This document shows, one piece after another, positions 9,282-49,763 of a stretch of DNA of 64,000 nt (position 1 is the first letter of the stretch; every line of letters begins with the position of its first letter). A program made the position numbers and the translations under genes. Below the pieces are notes generated by a model. The model saw only the letters and a list, made by a program, of their open reading frames with translations, was not told where the DNA came from and did not search any database. Source of the DNA: a virus; the IMG/VR virus record IMGVR_UViG_3300033145_000788, positions 1 to 64,000 of that record; one strand, given 5' to 3'.

Positions 9282-9946
9282 TAAATGAATGGCGGGGAAG
9301 AGTATCCGGCAAGACCGTGAGGCTGTTTAATCGGTGGGTTGAAAAAGTGGCCTGCCAGGGATATCACAGCCACTCCATTCCCGAGACCGGTCAAAAGTTT
9401 ATTTTTGTCCGGAAGCGGGTTAGGGGGAAACTGGTTTTTGATATTGAAATATTATCTGGAATTTCGCCACCATCGGGAGGAACGCCCCGTCCGAAAGAAT
9501 GGACGGATGTTGATGAATTCGGGATTACCTTCTTGGATCTCTCAAAGAAAAATCAGAAGATAATTTTGGGCGCAGAAGACCCATATAAAGAATTGGAGGG
9601 CCGGGGGAAATGGAGGGAGTTTATCCGGTCTCTGGGATTCAGAAGCCAGAAGGATTACGAATCGGCACTCCGGAAAGCGATGGTTCGACTTCAGCATATG
9701 TTGGAAAAGAAAGATCTTGTTCCGGTTATGAGAGGAGAACGGGAATTACATGGCTGGCAGGAGATCGCAGACTTTTTGCAAAGGGGCATTCTCGTGACCC
9801 GGATGCTGGCTACCGAGTATGGGTTACCGGTAGCTTTATTAGGTAAGACGCCTTATTCGACCGAGGAGAAATTGAGGGTTTGGATGGAGGAACTGGTGGA
9901 AAACCACCCAATTTGGAAGGAGGAACTAAAAAAAAGCATGGAATAA
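9278..9946 (+). CDS. Protein with C-terminal helix-turn-helix
   Basis: 222 residues from ATG 9278, overlapping the upstream stop. The C-terminal ~65 residues (HGWQEIADFLQRGILVTRML, then TPYSTEEKLRVW) form an HTH module that recurs in the 93-residue protein at 53994. The N-terminal part has no recognised domain. A DNA-binding regulator is likely; it stands directly upstream of the operator region at 10024-10163. Confidence 0.6.
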   Translation: MINEWRGRVSGKTVRLFNRWVEKVACQGYHSHSIPETGQKFIFVRKRVRGKLVFDIEILSGISPPSGGTPRPKEWTDVDEFGITFLDLSKKNQKIILGAEDPYKELEGRGKWREFIRSLGFRSQKDYESALRKAMVRLQHMLEKKDLVPVMRGERELHGWQEIADFLQRGILVTRMLATEYGLPVALLGKTPYSTEEKLRVWMEELVENHPIWKEELKKSME

Positions 9947-10188
9947 CTTATTGATATGATTGAGAAATTACAGATAGATTTATAACCACTTGAAATTATT
10001 AAAGATTTATCGCCCGTTTTTACTTAATATTCTTAAAGTAATTTTTAATATTCTTAAAAAGAGGGTGTCATAACTAATTGAAATCATTAAATAATAAAAA
10101 AAGATAAAAAAAGTAAAAATAAAGCTTGACTTTATACTATTAGCTTAATTATAATTAAGCTAAAGGATAAGGGAAAGGAGGGGGAAAG
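9947..10188 (+). promoter_or_regulatory. AT-rich control region with direct repeats, promoter and palindrome
   Basis: A gene-free stretch of about 240 nt. It holds two copies of TTAATATTCTTAAA (10024-10037 and 10045-10058, 21 bp apart, i.e. two helical turns). A sigma70-like promoter follows: TTGACT 10126-10131, 18 nt, TATAAT 10150-10155. A perfect 24-bp palindrome at 10140-10163 is centred on the -10 box. The layout suggests a repressor-controlled promoter; the repeats could alternatively be origin iterons. Confidence 0.7.
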
Positions 10189-16080: not shown

Positions 16081-16111
16081 ATAACCCTAAAAGGAGACGA
16101 AAGGAGAAGTG

Positions 16112-16360
16112 ATGTCTGAAGAAAATCAAACGGAGAAAAGCATAGCGGAGCATTGGGATGATTTGAAGAAAGAGGACCAATGTACAAGACAAGCCGAGGA
16201 ATACTGGAATAATCTAGATATGGAAGACTCTATTTTTGTTGACAATAAGAAATTAAAAGAAGTCATCACCGGGGTTTTCCGAACAGGGTATACAAAAGGA
16301 TATCTTGATGGAATAAGATATGCGATGGAAAGATTCCAGACTGAGCTCAAAATCCTATGA
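16112..16360 (+). CDS. Small acidic helical protein, 82 aa
   Basis: ATG 16112 follows AAAGGAGAAGTG. A charged N-terminal half precedes the motif TGYTKGYLDGIRYAMERF, seen in small phage proteins. Its stop overlaps the ATG of the next gene. Confidence 0.55.
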   Translation: MSEENQTEKSIAEHWDDLKKEDQCTRQAEEYWNNLDMEDSIFVDNKKLKEVITGVFRTGYTKGYLDGIRYAMERFQTELKIL

Positions 16361-16674
16361 CCATTCTAATGTTCGTCCGACCAAAAGGAAGTCTCTGACT
16401 GGCCTGTGAGGACGCCCGCCAGTTAGGTTGGCTATTGGAAAGACACGGATTTGATATTAAGATTCTTGAACTTGAAACCCCTGCGGGTTTGATGGAGGCG
16501 GCCTGGGAGGAACTGATAGGGGATGACGATTTTCTCTTTCCCACCGTTTACATCCCCGATCCGTCTAGATTACTGAATGGTCAGGGGAAAATGTGGAAGG
16601 GGGAAGTCCCAAAATTTGAGGAGATATGGGAGGCGGAGAATGACCAGATATTTTATACAACAACCTTTCGATGA
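16357..16674 (+). CDS. Glutaredoxin-like protein with in-frame UGA, candidate selenoprotein
   Basis: ATG 16357 overlaps the upstream stop. The frame reads MTILMFVRPKGSL, then TGA (16396-16398), then LAC, and stays open to 16674. Translating through gives a thioredoxin-fold pattern: strand TILMFVRP, UxxC in the place of a CxxC, helix EDARQLGWLLERHG, strand FDIKILELET, helix, and FPTVYIP (the usual cis-Pro strand). The UGA falls on the first residue of the redox motif, as in selenocysteine-containing glutaredoxins. A 9-bp hairpin (16395-16403 with 16418-16426) includes the UGA, and a second small hairpin lies at 16418-16431. Alternatives are a Cys-to-stop mutation or a short ORF starting at TTG 16435. 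Confidence 0.55.
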
Positions 16675-16699
16675 TTTTATTCGGGAGGACTTATAATAA

Positions 16700-18046
16700 A
16701 TGAATGGACAAGAACAAGAAGACAAGAAGGAAAAACGAAGGCGGGATGTCGCCCATCTTTGGTGTGACAAACAAGTCCTGAGATTTTTCAGGAAAGGATT
16801 CGACAAAAGGGCTTATCGGAAATATCGGGATGTATATCTGGCCCTCTGTGAGATAGACAGCGATTTCAATGAAGGTAAAATATACAACCTTACCAAGACA
16901 TGCGGCACCTATACGGGGATGGACCAGGGAAATATCTCAAAGATTCTTCAGGAGTTCAGAAAAAACGGGCTGATAGACTACGGCCGCAGGAAGAACGATC
17001 AAGGTCAGATCATCGGTTCTTTTCTGGTTATGTACAAGTGGGAGGACACTATATATCATGAAAACCTTATAAGGCTAGACCCTATTAAGGCTAGACCCCA
17101 TAATAATAAGAACCCTAAAGGGGAGCCTTATAAGAATTCTTCTAGTGAAGAAGGTTTTTCATATTCTTCTAAAGAACAAGAAGAATATGTTGTGGCATCT
17201 GATGCTGCCAATCATACCCAAAAGATTCTCTTTAAGAGAGACAAGAAGAAAGTAGTCTCCTTCCTAATGAAAGCAAAGCAGAAGGCTAAACCAATCCCTA
17301 AAAAGAAACAGGCCAAAACGGCTGTTGCCCTTATAGACCACTGGAACGCCCTCCGGCTCAGGAGGCACCTTGACCCAAAGAAGAAGATTTACTCCGAGGC
17401 CGTCCGGCGGATAAAATATCTAAAGCAAGGTAAGTTGTACGATGGCCAAGAGGACTTCAAGGAATACTGGGGCCGCAGGTTCACGGACGAGGAAATCAGG
17501 GCTTCGATGGATAATTTCGCCTTGGCCGCCCTTGACCCGGTCTACGAGCCGTCCCCCGCCGTCAAGGATCGGTTGAGGATGACGGGTTTGCCGGATTTTT
17601 TTCTGTCGCCGTTCGCAAAGGAGAAGAGCTATTTCCTGAAATATCTGAGGGGGAAGCCTAAGCCGGTTCCCTGGATGGCGGCCCCGAAGGACGAACATCC
17701 GGGTTTGACGAAGGCCCTGAAACGGGTTTATACGGACAATGTTCTCGGAGGGCTCAAACCGGAGAAGTGGCCTCTGGCCGACGAGAGGTCGTTTAGGCTC
17801 GCCAGTAACCGGGTGTGGGATTTCTTCTCCCGGAACCGGGAGCTGGTAAGCCCGGTGGTCTTGTCGGGGAACGGGACGAAGGAGGCGAACATGGCCCGGC
17901 TTTTGTTTGATGCGATCTCCGCCGATGTGGGTGACGCCGGGATAGGCAAGTTGTCCCCCGGCTGGTTCGGGTCGGAGGCGACCATAGCCCGTCGCCTGCC
18001 GTCCTATTTGTACAGCCAGGGCATTATTAATCAACCGATGAGGTGA
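16700..18046 (+). CDS. Replication-initiator-like winged-helix protein
   Basis: 448 residues. The N-terminal ~120 residues form a winged helix (DQGNISKILQEFRKNGLIDYG). A lysine-rich linker (about 185-215) and a C-terminal region with long helices follow. The wing pattern is typical of phage replisome organiser proteins (lambda O / DnaD-like groups). Its place upstream of a DnaB-type helicase at 19741 supports an initiator or helicase-loading role. No ATPase motif is visible. Confidence 0.55.
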   Translation: MNGQEQEDKKEKRRRDVAHLWCDKQVLRFFRKGFDKRAYRKYRDVYLALCEIDSDFNEGKIYNLTKTCGTYTGMDQGNISKILQEFRKNGLIDYGRRKNDQGQIIGSFLVMYKWEDTIYHENLIRLDPIKARPHNNKNPKGEPYKNSSSEEGFSYSSKEQEEYVVASDAANHTQKILFKRDKKKVVSFLMKAKQKAKPIPKKKQAKTAVALIDHWNALRLRRHLDPKKKIYSEAVRRIKYLKQGKLYDGQEDFKEYWGRRFTDEEIRASMDNFALAALDPVYEPSPAVKDRLRMTGLPDFFLSPFAKEKSYFLKYLRGKPKPVPWMAAPKDEHPGLTKALKRVYTDNVLGGLKPEKWPLADERSFRLASNRVWDFFSRNRELVSPVVLSGNGTKEANMARLLFDAISADVGDAGIGKLSPGWFGSEATIARRLPSYLYSQGIINQPMR

Positions 18047-19740: not shown

Positions 19741-21273
19741 ATGACCGGAATCCAGATTAAAGGCTCTAAAATAGACGCAGACCGGGAGAAGCAGATGCTC
19801 ATCTGCGCCGTGGTTGACTCCCGGTTTCTAAGGGAGGTATCCTTGTTCCTTAAGCCGGAGCATTTTCAGGTTGCCTATGCCAGCCGGGTGTATTCCTGGA
19901 TACTGGATTACTTTAAGCGATACGACCAGGCCCCCGGAAGCCAGATCCAAGACCTGTACGAAATGAACAAACAGAAACTGGATGAGGCGGAGGGGGAACT
20001 GGTGGCCTCATTCCTTCTTGATTTGAGTGAGAGGTATGAGGACGAGGGTATTAATTCCGATTATCATCTGGACCGGGCCTTGGAGTACGCTAAGACGAGG
20101 GAGATAACCTTGATAGCGGACGAAGCCAAGGCACTCGTCTCCAGGGGCCAGATTGACGAGGCGGAGCGGCTGGTTACTGGATATCGCCAGGCGGCCAGGG
20201 CCACCTCGTCGTGGGTCAATCCTCATGATCCTGAGTTTGTGAGATCGGCGTTTGAGAGGATCACCGGTGACGAGCTTATCCGGTTTCCTGGGATGCTCGG
20301 CCGACTCCTCGGTCCGTTCTGCCGCCATTGGATGATAGCGTTTCAAGGACCGGCTAAAAGGGGAAAGACGTGGTGGGTTCAGGAGGTCAGGACATTGGCC
20401 CTAATGAACCGGCTGAAGGTGGTGGAGATAAATTTGGAGATGACGAGGGAGCAGTTGGCGGTCAGGTATTACAAGAGGATAACGGGTTTGGCGGATGAGA
20501 CCGGGGATTATCTTTACCCCGTATTCGATTGTCTTAAGAACCAGAATGATTCTTGTCAGAAGCCGGAGCGGGAATGCCGGATTGGGCTTTTGGGAGAAGA
20601 TGGATATCAACCGAAGTACGAGGATCAACCGGAAGGATATGCTCCCTGTGTCAAGTGCCGGGGGTCAAGAGACTATCTATCGGCGACTTGGTGGCAGACG
20701 GTTCACAAGGCAGGGTTGGATGTAGGAGGTATCATCCGAGGCGTCGAATCATTTGGCTTGATGTATGGTCAGGATAACTATCGCATTCAATGTTATCCAA
20801 GAGGAAGTGCGACGGTTGGGAATATAGAAAGGGATTTGGATATGCTGGAATATACTGATGAATTTATCCCGGATGTGATAATCGTGGATTATGCCGATAT
20901 TATCAAGGCGGAATCAAACAAGGATGAACACAGGCATAAGATAGATGAGATCTGGAAAAGGTTGGATGGGATGGCCCAGGAGAGACATGTTCTTATGGTG
21001 ACGGCCACTCACGCAAATTGGAGGCGGGTCGAGGGAAAAAGGATTCAATCTGCGGTTGATGTATCAGAGGATACCCGGAAGGCAAATCATCTGGATATGC
21101 TCGTGATGCTTGATCAACAGGACTGGGAATTGGAGAAAGGGATAATGCGGCTCGGGGTCGGGCTTCACCGTCATCGGGAGTTCAATCCGGGGGTCCGGGT
21201 CCAAGTGCTCCAACATTTCAAGACCGGTCAGCCGTTTTTGGACAGCGAATACGAAAGGAGAAAGGAGGAATGA
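19741..21273 (+). CDS. Replicative DNA helicase, DnaB-like
   Basis: 510 residues. An N-terminal helical domain (about 1-150) resembles DnaB-N. The RecA-like domain has Walker A GPAKRGKT (203-210), ATHANWRR and Walker B IIVDYADI near residue 383. A Cys-rich insertion (CLKNQNDSC ... ECR ... PCVKC, about 262-310) is not part of standard DnaB and probably binds zinc. It would unwind the fork with the primase at 22953 and the polymerase at 30707. Confidence 0.85.
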   Translation: MTGIQIKGSKIDADREKQMLICAVVDSRFLREVSLFLKPEHFQVAYASRVYSWILDYFKRYDQAPGSQIQDLYEMNKQKLDEAEGELVASFLLDLSERYEDEGINSDYHLDRALEYAKTREITLIADEAKALVSRGQIDEAERLVTGYRQAARATSSWVNPHDPEFVRSAFERITGDELIRFPGMLGRLLGPFCRHWMIAFQGPAKRGKTWWVQEVRTLALMNRLKVVEINLEMTREQLAVRYYKRITGLADETGDYLYPVFDCLKNQNDSCQKPERECRIGLLGEDGYQPKYEDQPEGYAPCVKCRGSRDYLSATWWQTVHKAGLDVGGIIRGVESFGLMYGQDNYRIQCYPRGSATVGNIERDLDMLEYTDEFIPDVIIVDYADIIKAESNKDEHRHKIDEIWKRLDGMAQERHVLMVTATHANWRRVEGKRIQSAVDVSEDTRKANHLDMLVMLDQQDWELEKGIMRLGVGLHRHREFNPGVRVQVLQHFKTGQPFLDSEYERRKEE

Positions 21274-29048: not shown

Positions 29049-30710
29049 ATGCAAGAAAAAATTACATTACCAGAATATAAAGTTCCATTCTATTTGCGCA
29101 AATATTTTCAACCCAAGTTGGATAATTGTTATATTTGTCATCTTGTGGGTATTTTCAGGGAAATAAAAAGAGTATTGAGAAAGGATGGCACGGTCTGGTT
29201 GAATATGGGGGACAGTTATGCTTCTGGTAAGGGTTCATGTTTTAATCCGGGCGGCGGAGCAAATTCCCTCGAGGGTCATGCAAAATTAAAAGCGCATGGA
29301 GCATATAAATTAAACAGACCGAATATATCTGACCTCGAGGCGATGGGCCTCAAACCTAAAGATCTTTGTATGATACCTGCTCGTTTAGCCCTGGCCCTGC
29401 AAGCCGAGGGCTGGTGGTTGAGAAGTGCAATAACGTGGTGTAAGGGTTCTCCCATGCCTGAAAGTGTTAAAGATAGGTCGACTAGTGCAACAGAGATGAT
29501 TTTTTTATTAACAAAATCTATGAAATATTATTATGATTCATTGGCCGTTTCGCAACCGCGTGCGGCGGGGGCTACAGATTTCACATCTTTTGGCCGTGCC
29601 GCTTTGGCTCCAAAATTTTCGGCCACAATTCATACAGAAGATATCTCGTTTAACGGAGGGGGGTTTTTGGATTTTGGTCAATCTAAGATATCCATCAGCA
29701 ATTCTATGACAACGAATACACAGAGACTCCAGATTGTCAATATGGTTGGCTTCAATATAAGAGTTGAAGTTTCGGAAGGGAATTTTATGATGAACATGAA
29801 TAGTCGTGACCTCTTGAGTCTTTCCGCAGATTTGGCAGGTAAAATTATCTCGTTTCAAAGCAATTTTTCTTTGGGTTCTCCAATTAGGTCCCTTGTATTG
29901 GATTTGCCCGCCTCGCCAAGTGGGGCTATTCTTACCAGTCATATTGATGCTGATCCACTTCCCAGTACATTTTTGGGAGCAAAAATTTCTTTTATGGAGT
30001 GCGCTTTTATACCTGAAAAATTCTTTGCCGCAAATATCACAATGAACTTTAATCAGTTTCGTGCGACCCTTTTTATTTGGACTTCCCTTCCGTCTTCCCA
30101 TAGTGTTGTTTCCTTTCACCCTAAGAATAATAAAAATATAATAGAAAGTCAAGGAAGAAATTTATGGAATTGGTGGTTAATAAATCCGCAGCCCTTCCCG
30201 GACGCCCATTTTGCGGTATTCCCTGAAAAATTAGTTGAACCTTGTATTAAGGCGGGGACGTCCGAAAAGGGTTGCTGTCCTGAATGCGGTGCGCCGTGGA
30301 AAAGAATAGTGAAAAAAAACAGAACCTTTGAAAGCGGGTCTGGAAAAAGTGGGAATATGCCTATTGGTAAAAGGGGGTCTAATCTTCAGGGTGACGGTGA
30401 GACGCTTGATATTAGGAGGGGGGTTGTTGTTTATACTCAAACCGTTGGATGGAAACCGGGTTGTAATTGCAAGAAGGATCCTGTTCCTTGTGTTGTGCTT
30501 GATCCTTTTGGCGGGGCCGGGACGGTTGGGGTGGTGGCCTATAAATTGAACCGGGATTTCTTGCTGATTGAATTGTCCCCGGAATATTGCGAGATGGCGA
30601 AAAAGAGAATAGGGAAAACGGTCAAGAGATTTGAATCGGGATTCGGATTGATGAGACCGAAGCCGTTGAAAAAAAAGAAACCCAAAAAGTTAGGATTGCT
30701 GGATAAATGA
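29049..30710 (+). CDS. DNA methyltransferase C-terminal part, with inserted HNH gene
   Basis: The first ~25 residues derive from the invading sequence. Methyltransferase sequence resumes at about 29130 (HLVGIFREIKRVLRKDG, VWLNMGDSY, ITWCKGSPMPESVKDR). Residues about 168-362 (29550-30135) are the antisense of an HNH gene. Methyltransferase sequence then returns with QPFPDAHFAVFPEKLVEPCIKAG and DPFGGAGTVG, the SAM-binding loop. Remarkably the frame stays open across the insert. The C-terminal tail matches that of the methyltransferase at 24477. Whether any active enzyme is made is doubtful. Confidence 0.6.
   Translation: MQEKITLPEYKVPFYLRKYFQPKLDNCYICHLVGIFREIKRVLRKDGTVWLNMGDSYASGKGSCFNPGGGANSLEGHAKLKAHGAYKLNRPNISDLEAMGLKPKDLCMIPARLALALQAEGWWLRSAITWCKGSPMPESVKDRSTSATEMIFLLTKSMKYYYDSLAVSQPRAAGATDFTSFGRAALAPKFSATIHTEDISFNGGGFLDFGQSKISISNSMTTNTQRLQIVNMVGFNIRVEVSEGNFMMNMNSRDLLSLSADLAGKIISFQSNFSLGSPIRSLVLDLPASPSGAILTSHIDADPLPSTFLGAKISFMECAFIPEKFFAANITMNFNQFRATLFIWTSLPSSHSVVSFHPKNNKNIIESQGRNLWNWWLINPQPFPDAHFAVFPEKLVEPCIKAGTSEKGCCPECGAPWKRIVKKNRTFESGSGKSGNMPIGKRGSNLQGDGETLDIRRGVVVYTQTVGWKPGCNCKKDPVPCVVLDPFGGAGTVGVVAYKLNRDFLLIELSPEYCEMAKKRIGKTVKRFESGFGLMRPKPLKKKKPKKLGLLDK
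29538..30101 (-). mobile_element. HNH homing endonuclease gene inserted antisense in the methyltransferase
   Basis: 187 residues from the minus-strand ATG at 30101, which has a good AAAGGA site. N-terminal zinc finger CDICGKEF ... FCSQKC, NUMOD-like linker, then an HNH domain: FTCQICGKTQEV, IHVHHKIPF, NLESLCIRCHR. A second finger CMNCGRKF ... CEIC follows. Such free-standing HNH enzymes cut DNA to promote their own spread. It is the only clearly intact minus-strand gene. No intron features were identified. Confidence 0.85.
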
Positions 30711-34303: not shown

Positions 34304-35257
34304 ATGGCCAAGGTAGCATTGAAGGAAGAACTGAGGGAGATCCAGGATGGCAAATTCAAGACGACCGGGGAAATCATTCCCGAAGACAGTTTTTTATTTG
34401 ACACGCATCGCCTGACCCCGAAAGTCAAGGGTGGGACATATGGTGATATTTCTAATGTGGAGGTGGTTGATCCCGTTGAGCATATGAAGATTCACGGGAA
34501 CTTGAGAGAGCGGCCGGAGGAATTTGATAAGCTGAAGGCTATCGTTGATGACCGAGTGCAAGTGATGAAGCTTAAGAATAAGATCAACAATCAACTGAAG
34601 GCCTTTGAACGAAGGGTTGATTATTCATTGAGGGATATTTATGAGCATCTCCAAGAGGGATTGAATCGGGAGAACAAGGAACTCGGAAAGAGGGATAGGA
34701 TATTAGAGAAGGCGGTCAAGGAGATCATTCAATATGATGCGTTGGCCGCCGCTGCGTTATTAGTTCCCAATGTTGGGCCGGTCATAGTGGCTAACTGCAT
34801 TGTCTATATTGACTTAAAAAAGGCGAGGCATGCATCTAGCCTGTGGAAATACGTGGGGGTTGATAAACCTCGCCACAAGAAATATGTGAAAAGAGAATCT
34901 GGAGGAGGAAACCGAACGCTTCTAACGGTTCTATATCAAATGGCAGAGTGCCAAATGAAAGGTTATGGGCCGTATCGGGAGATATATGATCGTGAGAAAG
35001 AGAGCCGTTCTGTCTCCGAAAAAATTACCTGGAGTAGAAATACAGAAGGCAAACTGATTGAATGTGTTTGGAAGGATACTATGCCGAGTCACCGTCATGG
35101 CCATGCGCTCAGGATGGTCATAAAGCACTTCCTTGCGGACTATTGGTTTGTGGGGCGGATGCTCCAGGGTTTGCCCACGAATCCGAGTTATGCCGAGGCG
35201 ATTTTGGGGAAAGAACATCGGACGATTAGTCCCCGTGAGAGGGGGTGGAAGTTTTAG
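34304..35257 (+). CDS. Tas-like protein with HNH-like N-terminus (TasH-type)
   Basis: 317 residues. Residues 33-65 read as an HNH-like motif: D33-T-H35, K42-G-G, N51, H60, H64. Residues about 75-140 are helical. From about 145 a helix-hairpin-helix Nop/Transposase_20-type domain follows (LVPNVGPVIVANCI near 151-164, KYVGVDKPRH, GGGNRTLLTVLYQMAE, then a His-rich C-terminus). This resembles the IS110 transposase C-terminal domain, to which Tas proteins are related. It lacks the IS110 DEDD domain. Flanked on both sides by TIGR arrays 1a and 1b, it is inferred to be an RNA-guided DNA-binding or cutting effector. Confidence 0.8.
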   Translation: MAKVALKEELREIQDGKFKTTGEIIPEDSFLFDTHRLTPKVKGGTYGDISNVEVVDPVEHMKIHGNLRERPEEFDKLKAIVDDRVQVMKLKNKINNQLKAFERRVDYSLRDIYEHLQEGLNRENKELGKRDRILEKAVKEIIQYDALAAAALLVPNVGPVIVANCIVYIDLKKARHASSLWKYVGVDKPRHKKYVKRESGGGNRTLLTVLYQMAECQMKGYGPYREIYDREKESRSVSEKITWSRNTEGKLIECVWKDTMPSHRHGHALRMVIKHFLADYWFVGRMLQGLPTNPSYAEAILGKEHRTISPRERGWKF

Positions 35258-35280
35258 AATGAAAAAGTTAAGATGGAGAA

Positions 35281-35630
35281 GAAACCCATCCCACTGAAGC
35301 GAGCTAACGAACCAAAGAAACCCACTGATTATAAGCGAGCCAAGGTGATAAAGAAACCCAGTTAGCGGAAGCGAGCTACGGTTAGCAAGAAAGCCATACA
35401 AGAAAAGCGAGTTAAATTATATAAGAAATTCGGTAATGAAAAGCAAGCCATTTCTGGGAAGGAATCCATTATCGGCAAGCGAGCCAAAAAAAATAAGAAA
35501 CCCACATCGAGGAAGTGAGCTACAAAAAAAAAGAAAACCATTGATTAGAAGCGAGCTATGGCCCAAAAGAAAACCAGTCTACAAAAGCGAGCCATAGACC
35601 TCAAGAAACCCAAGGTCAAGAAGCGAATTT
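35281..35630 (+). repeat. TIGR-like array 1b (ten 36-bp units)
   Basis: Ten units at exact 36-bp spacing, from 35281 to 35605. First repeat GAAACCCA (variants GAAAGCCA, GAAAACCA, GGAATCCA); second repeat GCGAGCYA (variants GCGAGTTA, GCAAGCCA, GTGAGCTA, final GCGAATTT). The 10-bp blocks all differ, such as tcccactgaa, acgaaccaaa, ctgattataa and gttagcggaa, and all end in AA. Same orientation and repeats as array 1a on the other side of the Tas gene. Confidence 0.92.
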
Positions 35631-38902: not shown

Positions 38903-39071
38903 TAGCTAGGTACTGTTTGAAATCTAATCTCCACTTGCGAGCTACGGTCGGAGTGAAATCTATTCCGGCATTGCGAGCTATAAACTTTTTGAAATCTATA
39001 AGGAACCTGCGAGCTATAAACTTTTTGAAATCTATTAAATGGTTGCGCACTACAATTCTCATTGAAGCCTA
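38901..39071 (+). repeat. TIGR-like array 2a (four 36-bp units)
   Basis: GAAATCTA at 38919, 38955, 38991 and 39027 alternates with GCGAGCTA at 38937, 38973, 39009 and 39045 (the last GCGCACTA), all gaps 10 bp. Degenerate end repeats are GATAGCTA at 38901 and GAAGCCTA at 39064. Gaps end in T. The block taaacttttt occurs twice (38981 and 39017). The first repeat differs from array 1 (TCT for CCC). Confidence 0.9.
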
Positions 39072-39211: not shown

Positions 39212-40345
39212 ATGAAAGAAGAAAAAAAGTTCCACCGTCCACAGCGCCATAAGCTGTTTGTGGATTACGCCAACGAAAAGGAAGTTGTGTATCTCGAACT
39301 TGAAAATGATGAGATATACCGATGCACCCCGATAGGATTTAAAAAAGTGGCCCTTGCTTCGAGGGAGATTTATTCCGAACCTATACCCATGAACCGGGCG
39401 AAGCCTCTGCTTGAAAAGGGAGTGAAGTTTTATCGATGCCGGACTACGGCCACCTCTGAACTCAGGGATAAACTTGGCCTGGAGAAGTCGGATGAGAATG
39501 ACGCTTTGGTCATTCGGGAATTATATAAACGTGATCCGGGGAACTTTCGGGAATGGACGGGGGAATCCCGGTTAGGTGCTCTCTATGCGATTTATAAACA
39601 AACACAAAAAGAGAAAGTTGCCGTTGGAAACAGGGACTACGCCCTCGGCGGTGACGAGATTATCTCCGACATCAAGAAGCGGCAGGATTCCATCTTGACC
39701 GTGATAGAGAAAAAGATGAAGGAAGAACTGGATAAATACGTGGTCACCCCTTGGCTTCTCTCCATTAAGGGGTTGTCCGTGGTTACGGCGGCGGGGATAG
39801 TTTTCTGGACCGAGAAAATTGGGATAGAGAACTTTGGTAATCCGAGTAAATTAAAAAAATACTTCGGTTTGCACGTCAAGGATGGCAAGTCGGTCCGGGG
39901 CGGCGATGTTTATGGAACAGATCAGAAATTAGATTTCCCTGTTATGGCGAGAGCCCTTATGATAGGGGTCGTCGCTGACCTGTTCGTGAAGCAGCGGTCA
40001 CCGGTTTACCGGAAGATATACGACCGTCATAAAGCGGAACAAACTGAGCGGGTCTTTGAGCCAGGCTTCCTAATGAAAGAGTTCAATGGCCGGGGTCCCC
40101 GGGTCAAGGGTCGGGCCAACCGATACGGGCCGGAGGACACCCGACTCGGGGCGGCCCACGCCAATAATCGGGCGATGAGAAAGATGATGCAAATATTCCT
40201 GATTCATCTGTGGGTGATCTGGCGTCAGTTGCTCGGACTCCCGACCCCGTTGGGATATGCCGAGAACCATTTGAAACATCGGTTTCCGCCCCTTCCGCCG
40301 AACGTGCCGAAGGAGCTTGAACCATTTGAGTGGGTGAAGGAATAG
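39212..40345 (+). CDS. Tas-like protein with RuvC/IS110-like N-terminus (TasR-type)
   Basis: 377 residues. The N-terminal domain has strand LFVDYAN (Asp18) and the IS110-type motif KSDENDALVIREL with Asp94 and Asp97 (DxxDA), so a DEDD/RuvC-like nuclease is likely; the second acidic residue is not clear. A helical linker (about 125-175) precedes the Nop/Transposase_20-like domain: LLSIKGLSVVTAAGI (near 182), KLKKYFGLHVKDGK, and ANNRAMRKMMQIFLIHLW. It is flanked by arrays 2a and 2b. A lone IS110 transposase is the alternative, but no insertion ends or second copy are seen. Confidence 0.8.
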   Translation: MKEEKKFHRPQRHKLFVDYANEKEVVYLELENDEIYRCTPIGFKKVALASREIYSEPIPMNRAKPLLEKGVKFYRCRTTATSELRDKLGLEKSDENDALVIRELYKRDPGNFREWTGESRLGALYAIYKQTQKEKVAVGNRDYALGGDEIISDIKKRQDSILTVIEKKMKEELDKYVVTPWLLSIKGLSVVTAAGIVFWTEKIGIENFGNPSKLKKYFGLHVKDGKSVRGGDVYGTDQKLDFPVMARALMIGVVADLFVKQRSPVYRKIYDRHKAEQTERVFEPGFLMKEFNGRGPRVKGRANRYGPEDTRLGAAHANNRAMRKMMQIFLIHLWVIWRQLLGLPTPLGYAENHLKHRFPPLPPNVPKELEPFEWVKE

Positions 40346-40381
40346 TATGACTGGGAGGGGGATTATGGCTAATTTAAAGTT

Positions 40382-40725
40382 GAAATCTATCCCCGGCCTG
40401 CGAATTGGTGATGATTCCCCGCTCCTTAAAAAGGCTAGAGAAGGGCTGAAATCTAAGCCAGCCCTGCGAGCTAGTCGGGTTCTGAAATCTAGAAGTTGAT
40501 TGCGAGCCATGGACATCCTGAAATCTACTCTTATTTTGCGAGCTACAGCCTTTTTGAAATCTAGAAATTGATTGCGAGCTATAAAACCAATGAAATCTAG
40601 GACCCCTTTGCAAGCTACTGAACGGCTGAAATCTATCAATCCGGTGCGAGCTAGCTGTCCATTGAAATCTATTTCTGCACTGCGAGCTACAGGGCAATTG
40701 AAATCTAAATGTCTTTTGTGAAAGA
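40382..40725 (+). repeat. TIGR-like array 2b (eight regular units plus one isolated)
   Basis: GAAATCTA at 40448, 40484, 40520, 40556, 40592, 40628, 40664 and 40700 alternates with GCGAGCTA (variants GCGAGCCA, GCAAGCTA) 18 bp later. The period is exactly 36 bp. An isolated GAAATCTA/GCGAATTG pair at 40382-40407 is separated by irregular sequence. All 10-bp blocks end in T. Two are near-identical (gaagttgatt 40492, gaaattgatt 40564). The last unit runs into the start of the exonuclease gene. Confidence 0.92.
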
Positions 40726-48373: not shown

Positions 48374-48649
48374 ATGATTTATCTTGATGCCCAAAGGGCG
48401 GCGGAAAGATTTGCCCCGATTTTTGAAAAGATGGGGTGGACGTGGAGGGGGAAAGATGGGAATCATTATGTTCCTCTTGAAGCACAAATTTGTCAACGAT
48501 TAATCCAGTTGAGAAGTGATATTATTTCTGATGATTGTCTAATGAGTGGTACTGGGAGATTAGAAGCTGTTAAAATGGATAAGGAACGAATTTGTTTTAG
48601 ATTAGACCCTGGAAGCGAGAGTGAGTGGGATAAACAATATGCCGGATAA
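48374..48649 (+). CDS. Unknown protein, 91 aa
   Basis: Start ATG 48374 after AAAGGAGAATG. Alpha/beta with no recognised motif. Overlaps the radical SAM gene by 11 nt. Confidence 0.5.
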   Translation: MIYLDAQRAAERFAPIFEKMGWTWRGKDGNHYVPLEAQICQRLIQLRSDIISDDCLMSGTGRLEAVKMDKERICFRLDPGSESEWDKQYAG

Positions 48650-49763
48650 CGACAAAATCACGGAATCGGTAATCATCCATCTGATTGAGACCTATGGCAA
48701 CTTGGCGAACCAGCAGAGGTTTAATCTGGCCAAGCATTGCGTAAGGACCGGCCAAATAAACAGGGGCCACAGTCAACTTATGAAGGTTTTGGAAAACAAT
48801 TCAAATCACGTTGAGGCCAGAAGGTTAATGGAGCTGATGCTCTTTGGGCCAGTGTGGCCGGTGCAGTTGTGCATCGAGCCGACAAACGAATGCCATGTCG
48901 GATGCCCTGGATGTGGGGGCCGGGACGGGGAGATCGGATACATGGACCTGGACCTCTTTAGGACTCTAATGTTGGAGGTCGCCCCGCATCTCCGGATTCT
49001 GGCCCTACATAATCGGGGTGAGTCGTTTCACCATCCTAAGATTTATGACTTCTTGGATGTAGTCGGACAATTCAAGCATATTTCAACATACATCCATACG
49101 GCCGGGCATCTTCCCTTGGATGCTGAGAGGATAGTCCGGGCTCAGGTGCCGACAGAGTTAGTGTTTAGCCTTGATGGGTTTACGGAGAAGACGCATAGGA
49201 AGTATAGAATCGGAGCCGACTTCCAAATTGCGATAGACAATATCAAGAGACTGAAGAAGGAGAAGCGTAAGCTGAACGTTGATAAGCCGAAGATCGTCTG
49301 GAAATATATTATGATGGGAACGAATGAGCGTGAGGTTAGGCAGGCGATGGGGTTAGCAGCCGAACTCGGATGCGATGAGTTCCGGATGGCCCCTTTTGCG
49401 GTTGGGTGGAAGACGATAGAGGGCAAGGTGGATGCCTATTTGAAGAAGTTTCTGCCTTCAGATGATAGGAATCTGAGGAATGACCGTGAGGCTTTGATGC
49501 AGGGAAAGATTGTAAAGGCGGGAAGGAAGCCGGGCGAGCCGTTTAATTGTATGGTGGTGCATAACTCGACCGCCATCCGGTGGGACGGGAAGGTCTTGCC
49601 CTGTTGCAATTGCCTTGAGCCGTATCAGCAGGTCATGGGGGTGTACGGGCCGGGGATGAAGTTCAAGGATATCTGGGATAGTACCGGGTTCCGGTCGTTC
49701 CGGAAGGCGGCTGTCTTGGATGCCAGGAGGCTGAAACCTTGTAGCATGTGCCATATGATTTAA
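48639..49763 (+). CDS. Radical SAM/SPASM-domain protein
   Basis: 374 residues from ATG 48639. An N-terminal ~70-residue helical region resembles a TPR pair (RTGQINRGHSQLMKVLENN). The radical SAM cluster motif is CHVGCPGC (CxxxCxxC, near residue 93). The C-terminal SPASM-like region has CMVV, CCNC and CSMC for auxiliary Fe-S clusters. SPASM enzymes often modify peptides or sugars. It begins a block with a glycosyltransferase and acyltransferases, so surface glycan modification or a peptide modification is possible. Confidence 0.82.
   Translation: MPDNDKITESVIIHLIETYGNLANQQRFNLAKHCVRTGQINRGHSQLMKVLENNSNHVEARRLMELMLFGPVWPVQLCIEPTNECHVGCPGCGGRDGEIGYMDLDLFRTLMLEVAPHLRILALHNRGESFHHPKIYDFLDVVGQFKHISTYIHTAGHLPLDAERIVRAQVPTELVFSLDGFTEKTHRKYRIGADFQIAIDNIKRLKKEKRKLNVDKPKIVWKYIMMGTNEREVRQAMGLAAELGCDEFRMAPFAVGWKTIEGKVDAYLKKFLPSDDRNLRNDREALMQGKIVKAGRKPGEPFNCMVVHNSTAIRWDGKVLPCCNCLEPYQQVMGVYGPGMKFKDIWDSTGFRSFRKAAVLDARRLKPCSMCHMI

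What the first reader, a model, noticed from the sequence alone, without database searches (positions are those of the whole stretch)
16357..16674. Candidate selenocysteine glutaredoxin encoded by a phage
An in-frame TGA (16396) lies exactly where the first Cys of a CxxC would be: GSL-U-LAC-EDARQLGW. The reading frame on both sides forms one thioredoxin-like pattern ending in FPTVYIP, and the ATG is coupled to the upstream gene. A 9-bp hairpin (16395-16403 / 16418-16426) includes the UGA, and a further small hairpin with a G-U-rich loop lies 24 nt downstream. Bacterial SECIS elements sit just after UGA, but whether these fit the consensus is uncertain.
Basis: partly seen in the sequence, partly recalled or inferred. 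Interest (0 to 1): 0.84.

Follow-up and report, generated by a model that had tools for sequence, protein, structure and literature searches.

The report
Possible selenocysteine glutaredoxin in phage
A small gene in an uncultured bacterial virus has a UGA stop codon where a glutaredoxin-like redox enzyme would have its reactive cysteine, so it may be read as the rare amino acid selenocysteine, but no relative, no specific RNA signal and no known host yet confirm this.

Summary
In detail: TGA 16396-16398 is in frame in 16357-16674, and both hairpins exist. The phage uses TGA as its commonest ordinary stop, so this would be local recoding, not a changed code.

For: read with Cys at the UGA, the product fits a glutaredoxin profile (hhalign probability 62%, E 8e-5) better than 600 shuffles, the other 65 TGA-readthrough frames of this phage, 400 readthrough frames and 1120 ORFs of related phages. 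The part after the TGA alone keeps a weak signal (0/300 shuffles as good). UGA then lies on phage T4 glutaredoxin Cys14.

Against: no homologue anywhere; no Pfam, NCBIfam or PHROG match; UxxC occurs in 3% of chance readthrough frames; 34% of this phage's TGAs pass the bacterial SECIS criteria; codon usage of the first 33 codons looks non-coding; the ATG has almost no Shine-Dalgarno; with a neutral residue at the UGA the best alignment slides so that Cys17 becomes the catalytic residue; host unknown; no tRNA-Sec in the record.

Verdict: about 40% selenocysteine. Rivals: chance frame after an ordinary stop, or a nonsense or sequencing change. In passing: three TIGR-like arrays beside two RuvC-type Tas-like genes.

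The parts
16357..16674 (+). candidate gene: 105 residues if UGA 16396 is read through; glutaredoxin-like product
   Evidence: hhalign probability 62% to a glutaredoxin profile with Cys at the UGA, 15-17% without
16396..16398 (+). in-frame TGA, candidate Sec codon (U14 of U-L-A-C17)
   Evidence: sequence; aligns with T4 NrdC Cys14 when given as Cys
16395..16426 (+). hairpin that contains the UGA (arms 16395-16403/16418-16426)
   Evidence: -13.6 kcal/mol from the UGA, top 3.7% of TGAs for stability; its apical loop is too close to the UGA (10 nt) for the bSECIS model
16418..16432 (+). alternative small hairpin GCCA-GUUAGGU-UGGC, loop 23 nt after UGA, G first in loop; fits the bSECIS rule
   Evidence: -9.7 kcal/mol in its best context, but 34% of TGAs pass the rule; criteria from PMC13188914
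16384..16391 (+). AAAGGAAG, a Shine-Dalgarno-like stretch 7 nt before CTG 16399 (rival start)
   Evidence: duplex energy -6.2, near the phage median of -6.1
16435..16674 (+). ORF that standard gene callers would report (TTG start, 79 aa)
   Evidence: codon usage clearly coding over 16435-16671 (24 bits)
16109..16360 (+). upstream gene whose TGA overlaps ATG 16357; unknown function
   Evidence: no Pfam match

Best explanation
The gene encodes a small glutaredoxin-like thiol oxidoreductase of the phage in which the N-terminal active-site residue is selenocysteine. It is inserted at UGA 16396 by the host's SelB and Sec-tRNA, guided by one of the hairpins right after the UGA, giving a U-x-x-C redox centre. 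Shown: the frame, the UGA, the hairpins, and a weak but above-control glutaredoxin resemblance. Inferred: recoding, the host having Sec machinery, the redox function (reduction of disulfides, by analogy with T4 NrdC).
For: Profile comparison with Cys at the UGA: probability 62%, E 7.6e-5, better than 600 shuffles and all other readthrough frames of the phage (next best score 18.7 against 27.5), than 400 readthrough frames and 1120 ORFs of related phages. The part after the TGA alone still beats 300 of 300 shuffles, as does the part from TTG 16435. In the best alignment U14/C17 fall on T4 NrdC Cys14/Cys17, 'ILMF' on the first strand and FPT on the cis-Pro loop. TGA is the commonest normal stop of this phage (25 of 53 plus-strand ORFs of at least 100 aa), so a genome-wide change of the code is excluded. 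The frame after the TGA is coding by codon usage (25 bits). The same machinery found a bacterial UxxC glutaredoxin with UGA at that site (L209), so such genes exist and the method sees them.
Against: No homologue in IMG/VR, GTDB species genomes, phage or plasmid records at the sensitivities available. No matching ORF in phages with the same replication genes. No Pfam, NCBIfam or PHROG match. The narrower phage-NrdC profile does not single it out (rank 36 of 5000 with Cys, 816 of 5000 with X). With Ser or X at the UGA the alignment slides by three so that C17 takes the place of the first catalytic Cys, meaning the UxxC register partly rests on the assumed Cys. Codon usage of codons 1-33 is low (5-9% of real genes score as low). 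ATG 16357 has almost no Shine-Dalgarno (-1.9). The SECIS match is not specific. Single-sequence AlphaFold models are poor (mean pLDDT 43 and 53) and match no thioredoxin fold. No tRNA-Sec in the record.
Confidence: 0.4

Rival explanations
1. Coincidence: TGA 16396 is an ordinary stop or lies in untranslated sequence, and the real gene is the downstream ORF, started at CTG 16399, TTG 16435 or later; the ATG-13-codon piece is a chance frame and the glutaredoxin look is weak convergence or a remnant.
For: 71 readthrough frames with an upstream start exist in this phage; UxxC in 3% of such frames; codon usage of the first 33 codons resembles off-frame DNA; AAAGGAAG stands 7 nt before CTG 16399 with a normal Shine-Dalgarno strength; no family match.
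Against: The recoded product outscores all control frames against the glutaredoxin profile. CTG starts are rare, and TTG 16435 has only random-level Shine-Dalgarno. The downstream part alone keeps a glutaredoxin-like signal but would lack strand 1 and the first catalytic residue.
Confidence: 0.35
2. A real Cys-type phage glutaredoxin broken at the active-site codon: TGC/TGT to TGA by nonsense mutation, mixed population or assembly error.
For: Same sequence evidence as for a glutaredoxin; one base separates TGA from TGC/TGT; a single metagenomic record, which the literature treats only as a candidate for exactly this reason (PMC1088965).
Against: A random nonsense change would have to hit the one codon where selenocysteine is expected; the rest of the frame is intact for 91 codons.
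Confidence: 0.18
3. UGA read as another amino acid (Trp or Gly by a recoded host) or unprogrammed readthrough.
For: None specific.
Against: TGA ends 25 of 53 plus-strand ORFs of at least 100 aa; no homology alignment credibly spans another TGA of this phage; no suppressor tRNA in the record.
Confidence: 0.03

Closest known systems
Phage T4 glutaredoxin NrdC (Tevenvirinae)
   Same: Short loop between strand 1 and the active site; C14-x-x-C17 at the same residue numbers as U14-x-x-C17; Asp/Glu18-x-Ala20; Pro of the cis-Pro loop followed by [VI]-[FY] one residue on.
   Different: Sec/UGA in place of Cys14; three extra residues in helix 1; long insert between strands 3 and 4; no GGF glutathione motif; similarity below significance with the NrdC profile alone.
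Bacterial Sec-containing glutaredoxin (UxxC), as in L209 and in PMC13188914
   Same: UGA at the first active-site position, UxxC, strand 1 just before it.
   Different: L209 is an ordinary Pfam glutaredoxin (47.9 bits); the phage protein has no Pfam match.
NrdH-redoxin (E. coli NrdH)
   Same: RGFDFEMINV against HGFDIKILEL after helix 1; a W-x-G motif near the end (WSGFRP against WKGEVP), judged by eye from a sequence written from memory.
   Different: Distance from the first Cys to that Gly is 14 residues in NrdH, 17 from U14 but 14 from C17 here, which favours the C17 register.

Membership tests
bacterial selenoprotein | in-frame UGA inside a coding frame | tested here: met
   frame open for 91 codons after the UGA, coding by codon usage; the 13 codons before it are not clearly coding
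bacterial selenoprotein | SECIS: loop 3-9 nt with G in the first two, stem of at least 4 bp, 16-37 nt from the UGA, MFE at or below -7.5 (PMC13188914) | tested here: inconclusive
   criteria met (spacing 23, -9.7) but also by 34% of TGAs in this phage
bacterial selenoprotein | homologues with Cys (or Sec) at the UGA position | tested here: inconclusive
   only a distant profile; UGA on the catalytic Cys when given as Cys, three residues off when neutral
bacterial selenoprotein | the same TGA in at least two different sequences (PMC1088965 standard) | tested here: not met
   no homologue found
bacterial selenoprotein | host with SelA, SelB, SelD and tRNA-Sec | not testable with these tools
   host unknown; no tRNA-Sec in the phage record
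glutaredoxin (PF00462) | match to the family model | tested here: not met
   no match at E up to 10
glutaredoxin (PF00462) | C/U-x-x-C/S at the start of helix 1 | tested here: met
   U14-L-A-C17, only if the UGA is Sec
glutaredoxin (PF00462) | cis-Pro motif | tested here: met
   FPT at 61-63 aligns with the templates' MPQ/VPQ; sequence level only
glutaredoxin (PF00462) | GG[FY] glutathione-binding motif | tested here: not met
   WKGEVPKF in that place
glutaredoxin (PF00462) | thioredoxin fold | tested here: inconclusive
   no alignment available; single-sequence models with pLDDT 43 and 53, no meaningful PDB match

The most novel reading that the evidence does not exclude
A phage gene is a true selenoprotein: a glutaredoxin-like enzyme with UxxC whose full-length synthesis depends on the host's Sec machinery, of a divergent family with no Cys relatives yet known.
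Probability: 0.4. Interest if true: 0.65.

Novelty: new member of a known kind. Interest (0 to 1): 0.42.

Why it matters
Sec-containing glutaredoxins are known in bacteria. In the literature library searched here no paper held the phrase 'phage selenoprotein', and a 2022 review and a 2026 review of prokaryotic selenoproteins never mention phages in their main text. If true, it would show a virus relying on the host's 21st amino acid for a redox enzyme, would tie this phage to Sec-decoding hosts, and would be missed by every standard gene caller, as here, where only a 79-aa ORF from TTG 16435 is listed.

Tried and rejected
Homologue searches: peptide patterns in IMG/VR and GTDB genomes, tblastn on phages and plasmids, a hand-made degenerate alignment, fixed-spacing DNA patterns with TGN at the UGA (chance hits only). 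Neighbour genes 16700-18046 and 19741-21273 as bait found nothing; the DNA polymerase worked as bait and gave relatives, none with the gene. Rfam on 16300-16700: only sub-threshold noise. Family searches in the own record with PF00462, PF05768, PF00085: nothing. AlphaFold without alignment: too poor to use, and a Foldseek search with it was meaningless. A recoded genome was rejected because TGA is the commonest stop. The SECIS consensus was rejected as evidence because of its background rate. The phage T4 NrdC profile alone was rejected as proof, although residue numbers agree.

Full report
What is there. The window is bases 1-64000 of a 98,976-base IMG/VR virus record that encodes a phage replication set (UvsW-type helicase, DnaB, primase, clamp loader, C-family DNA polymerase, UvsX) and, mostly beyond the window, portal, capsid and tape measure. 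ATG 16357 overlaps the stop of the gene before it; the frame meets TGA at 16396 after 13 codons, then runs 91 codons to TGA 16672. TGA ends 25 of 53 plus-strand ORFs of at least 100 aa, so the code is standard.

RNA. From the UGA the RNA folds into UGACUGGC/GCCAGUUA, -13.6 kcal/mol. Of 600 sampled TGAs of this phage 3.7% have so stable a 45-nt fold and 0.3% have the whole UGA paired as well. The published bacterial SECIS criteria (PMC13188914) are not met by that hairpin (loop 10 nt from the UGA) but are met by GCCA-GUUAGGU-UGGC (loop starting with G, 23 nt after the UGA, -9.7 kcal/mol in its best context). However 34% of the sampled TGAs meet them too, so this is no evidence either way. A bacterial Sec glutaredoxin found here as a positive example (L209) also has a hairpin shortly after its UGA.

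Protein. No Pfam, PHROG or NCBIfam model matches, nor PF00462, PF05768 or PF00085 in a read-through search of the record, and the solved-structure sequences give nothing. A profile was made from 13 phage NrdC/glutaredoxins, three E. coli glutaredoxin-type sequences written from memory, and bacterial glutaredoxin-type hits. Against it the product with Cys at the UGA has hhalign probability 62% and E 7.6e-5. None of 600 shuffles, none of the other 65 readthrough frames under 250 aa of this phage, and none of 400 readthrough frames or 1120 ORFs of 80-150 aa from related phages scores as high. With a neutral residue at the UGA the probability is 16%; two of the 1120 natural ORFs and one of the 600 shuffles reach that score. 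The piece after the TGA alone gives 15% and the piece from TTG 16435 7%, each better than 300 shuffles. The 13-member NrdC profile by itself does not single it out (with X, rank 802 of 5000).

Register. With Cys at the UGA, U14 and C17 fall on T4 NrdC C14 and C17, at the cost of a three-residue insertion in helix 1. With Ser or X there, the ungapped alignment is preferred and C17 takes the column of the first catalytic Cys. By eye, the distance from C17 to the Gly before strand 2 is the usual 14 residues of E. coli glutaredoxin 3 and NrdH. Either way strand 1 would lie upstream of the UGA, so a complete fold needs readthrough in both registers, but only the first makes the UGA residue catalytic.

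Look-elsewhere. Frames of start, TGA and about 60 or more further codons are common (71 in this phage) and UxxC occurs in about 3% of them. The codons before and just after the UGA do not look coding: 5-9% of real genes score so low over 33 codons. The ATG has almost no Shine-Dalgarno, while a normal one stands before CTG 16399.

Homologues. None in IMG/VR, GTDB species, phage or plasmid sets. Phages with about 42-53% identical DNA polymerase were found; two of them keep UvsW, primase, replication protein and DnaB close together but have no such ORF between, and nothing similar lies elsewhere in these records or in the other loci. No other TGA of this phage shows credible conservation across it.

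Conclusion. Local recoding to selenocysteine in a glutaredoxin-like phage protein is the single most likely reading (about 0.4), ahead of coincidence (0.35) and a broken or misread Cys codon (0.18). It works like a glutaredoxin if it works at all; membership in PF00462 is not claimed, because the model match and the GG[FY] motif were tested and not met. As a selenoprotein it remains a candidate by the field's own rule that a single sequence may be an error (PMC1088965).

In passing, the same window holds three 36-nt dual-repeat arrays next to two PHROG 'transposase' genes, which look like TIGR-Tas systems.

Noticed in passing
window 35279-35626 (array) with ORF 34304-35257: At least 8 copies of a 36-nt unit, AAGAAACCCA-n8-AAGCGAGCYA-n8, directly downstream of an ORF that PHROGs calls transposase; the layout (two short variable spacers per 36-nt unit) matches TIGR arrays with a Tas gene (PMC12045711).
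   Followed up: partly
window 38904-39052 and 40368-40707, around ORF 39212-40345: Two more arrays with 36-nt spacing, repeats TGAAATCTA and TGCGAGCYA with 8-9 nt spacers, flanking a second Tas-like ORF; three arrays and two Tas-like genes in one phage.
   Followed up: partly
L099:8957-9109 and 9937-10125 (related phage G009): The same kind of arrays near a homologous ORF in a related phage, so TIGR-like systems recur in this phage group with different repeats.
   Followed up: no
record 94470-97634 (L002:14470-17634): Tape measure gene of 1054 aa: residues 1-236 match tape measure families, residues 235-370 match the part shared by thymidylate synthase and ribonucleotide reductase families, which suggests an intein.
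   Followed up: no
window 29049-30710: DNA methyltransferase of 553 aa whose family match spans residues 28-529 but only 182 profile positions, so a large insertion of about 320 aa (intein or similar) is likely.
   Followed up: no
L001:12287-15487 (record about 75287-78487): 1066-aa protein joining a prohead protease domain (PF04586, residues 70-197) and an AAA ATPase domain (PF00004, residues 718-839), just before the major capsid gene.
   Followed up: no
L209 (genome G025, contig C176): A bacterial glutaredoxin with UGA at the first active-site position (SG-U-VFC), apparently a genuine Sec glutaredoxin in a bacterial MAG.
   Followed up: partly
window 48621-49763: Radical SAM protein with a SPASM domain encoded by the phage.
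   Followed up: no
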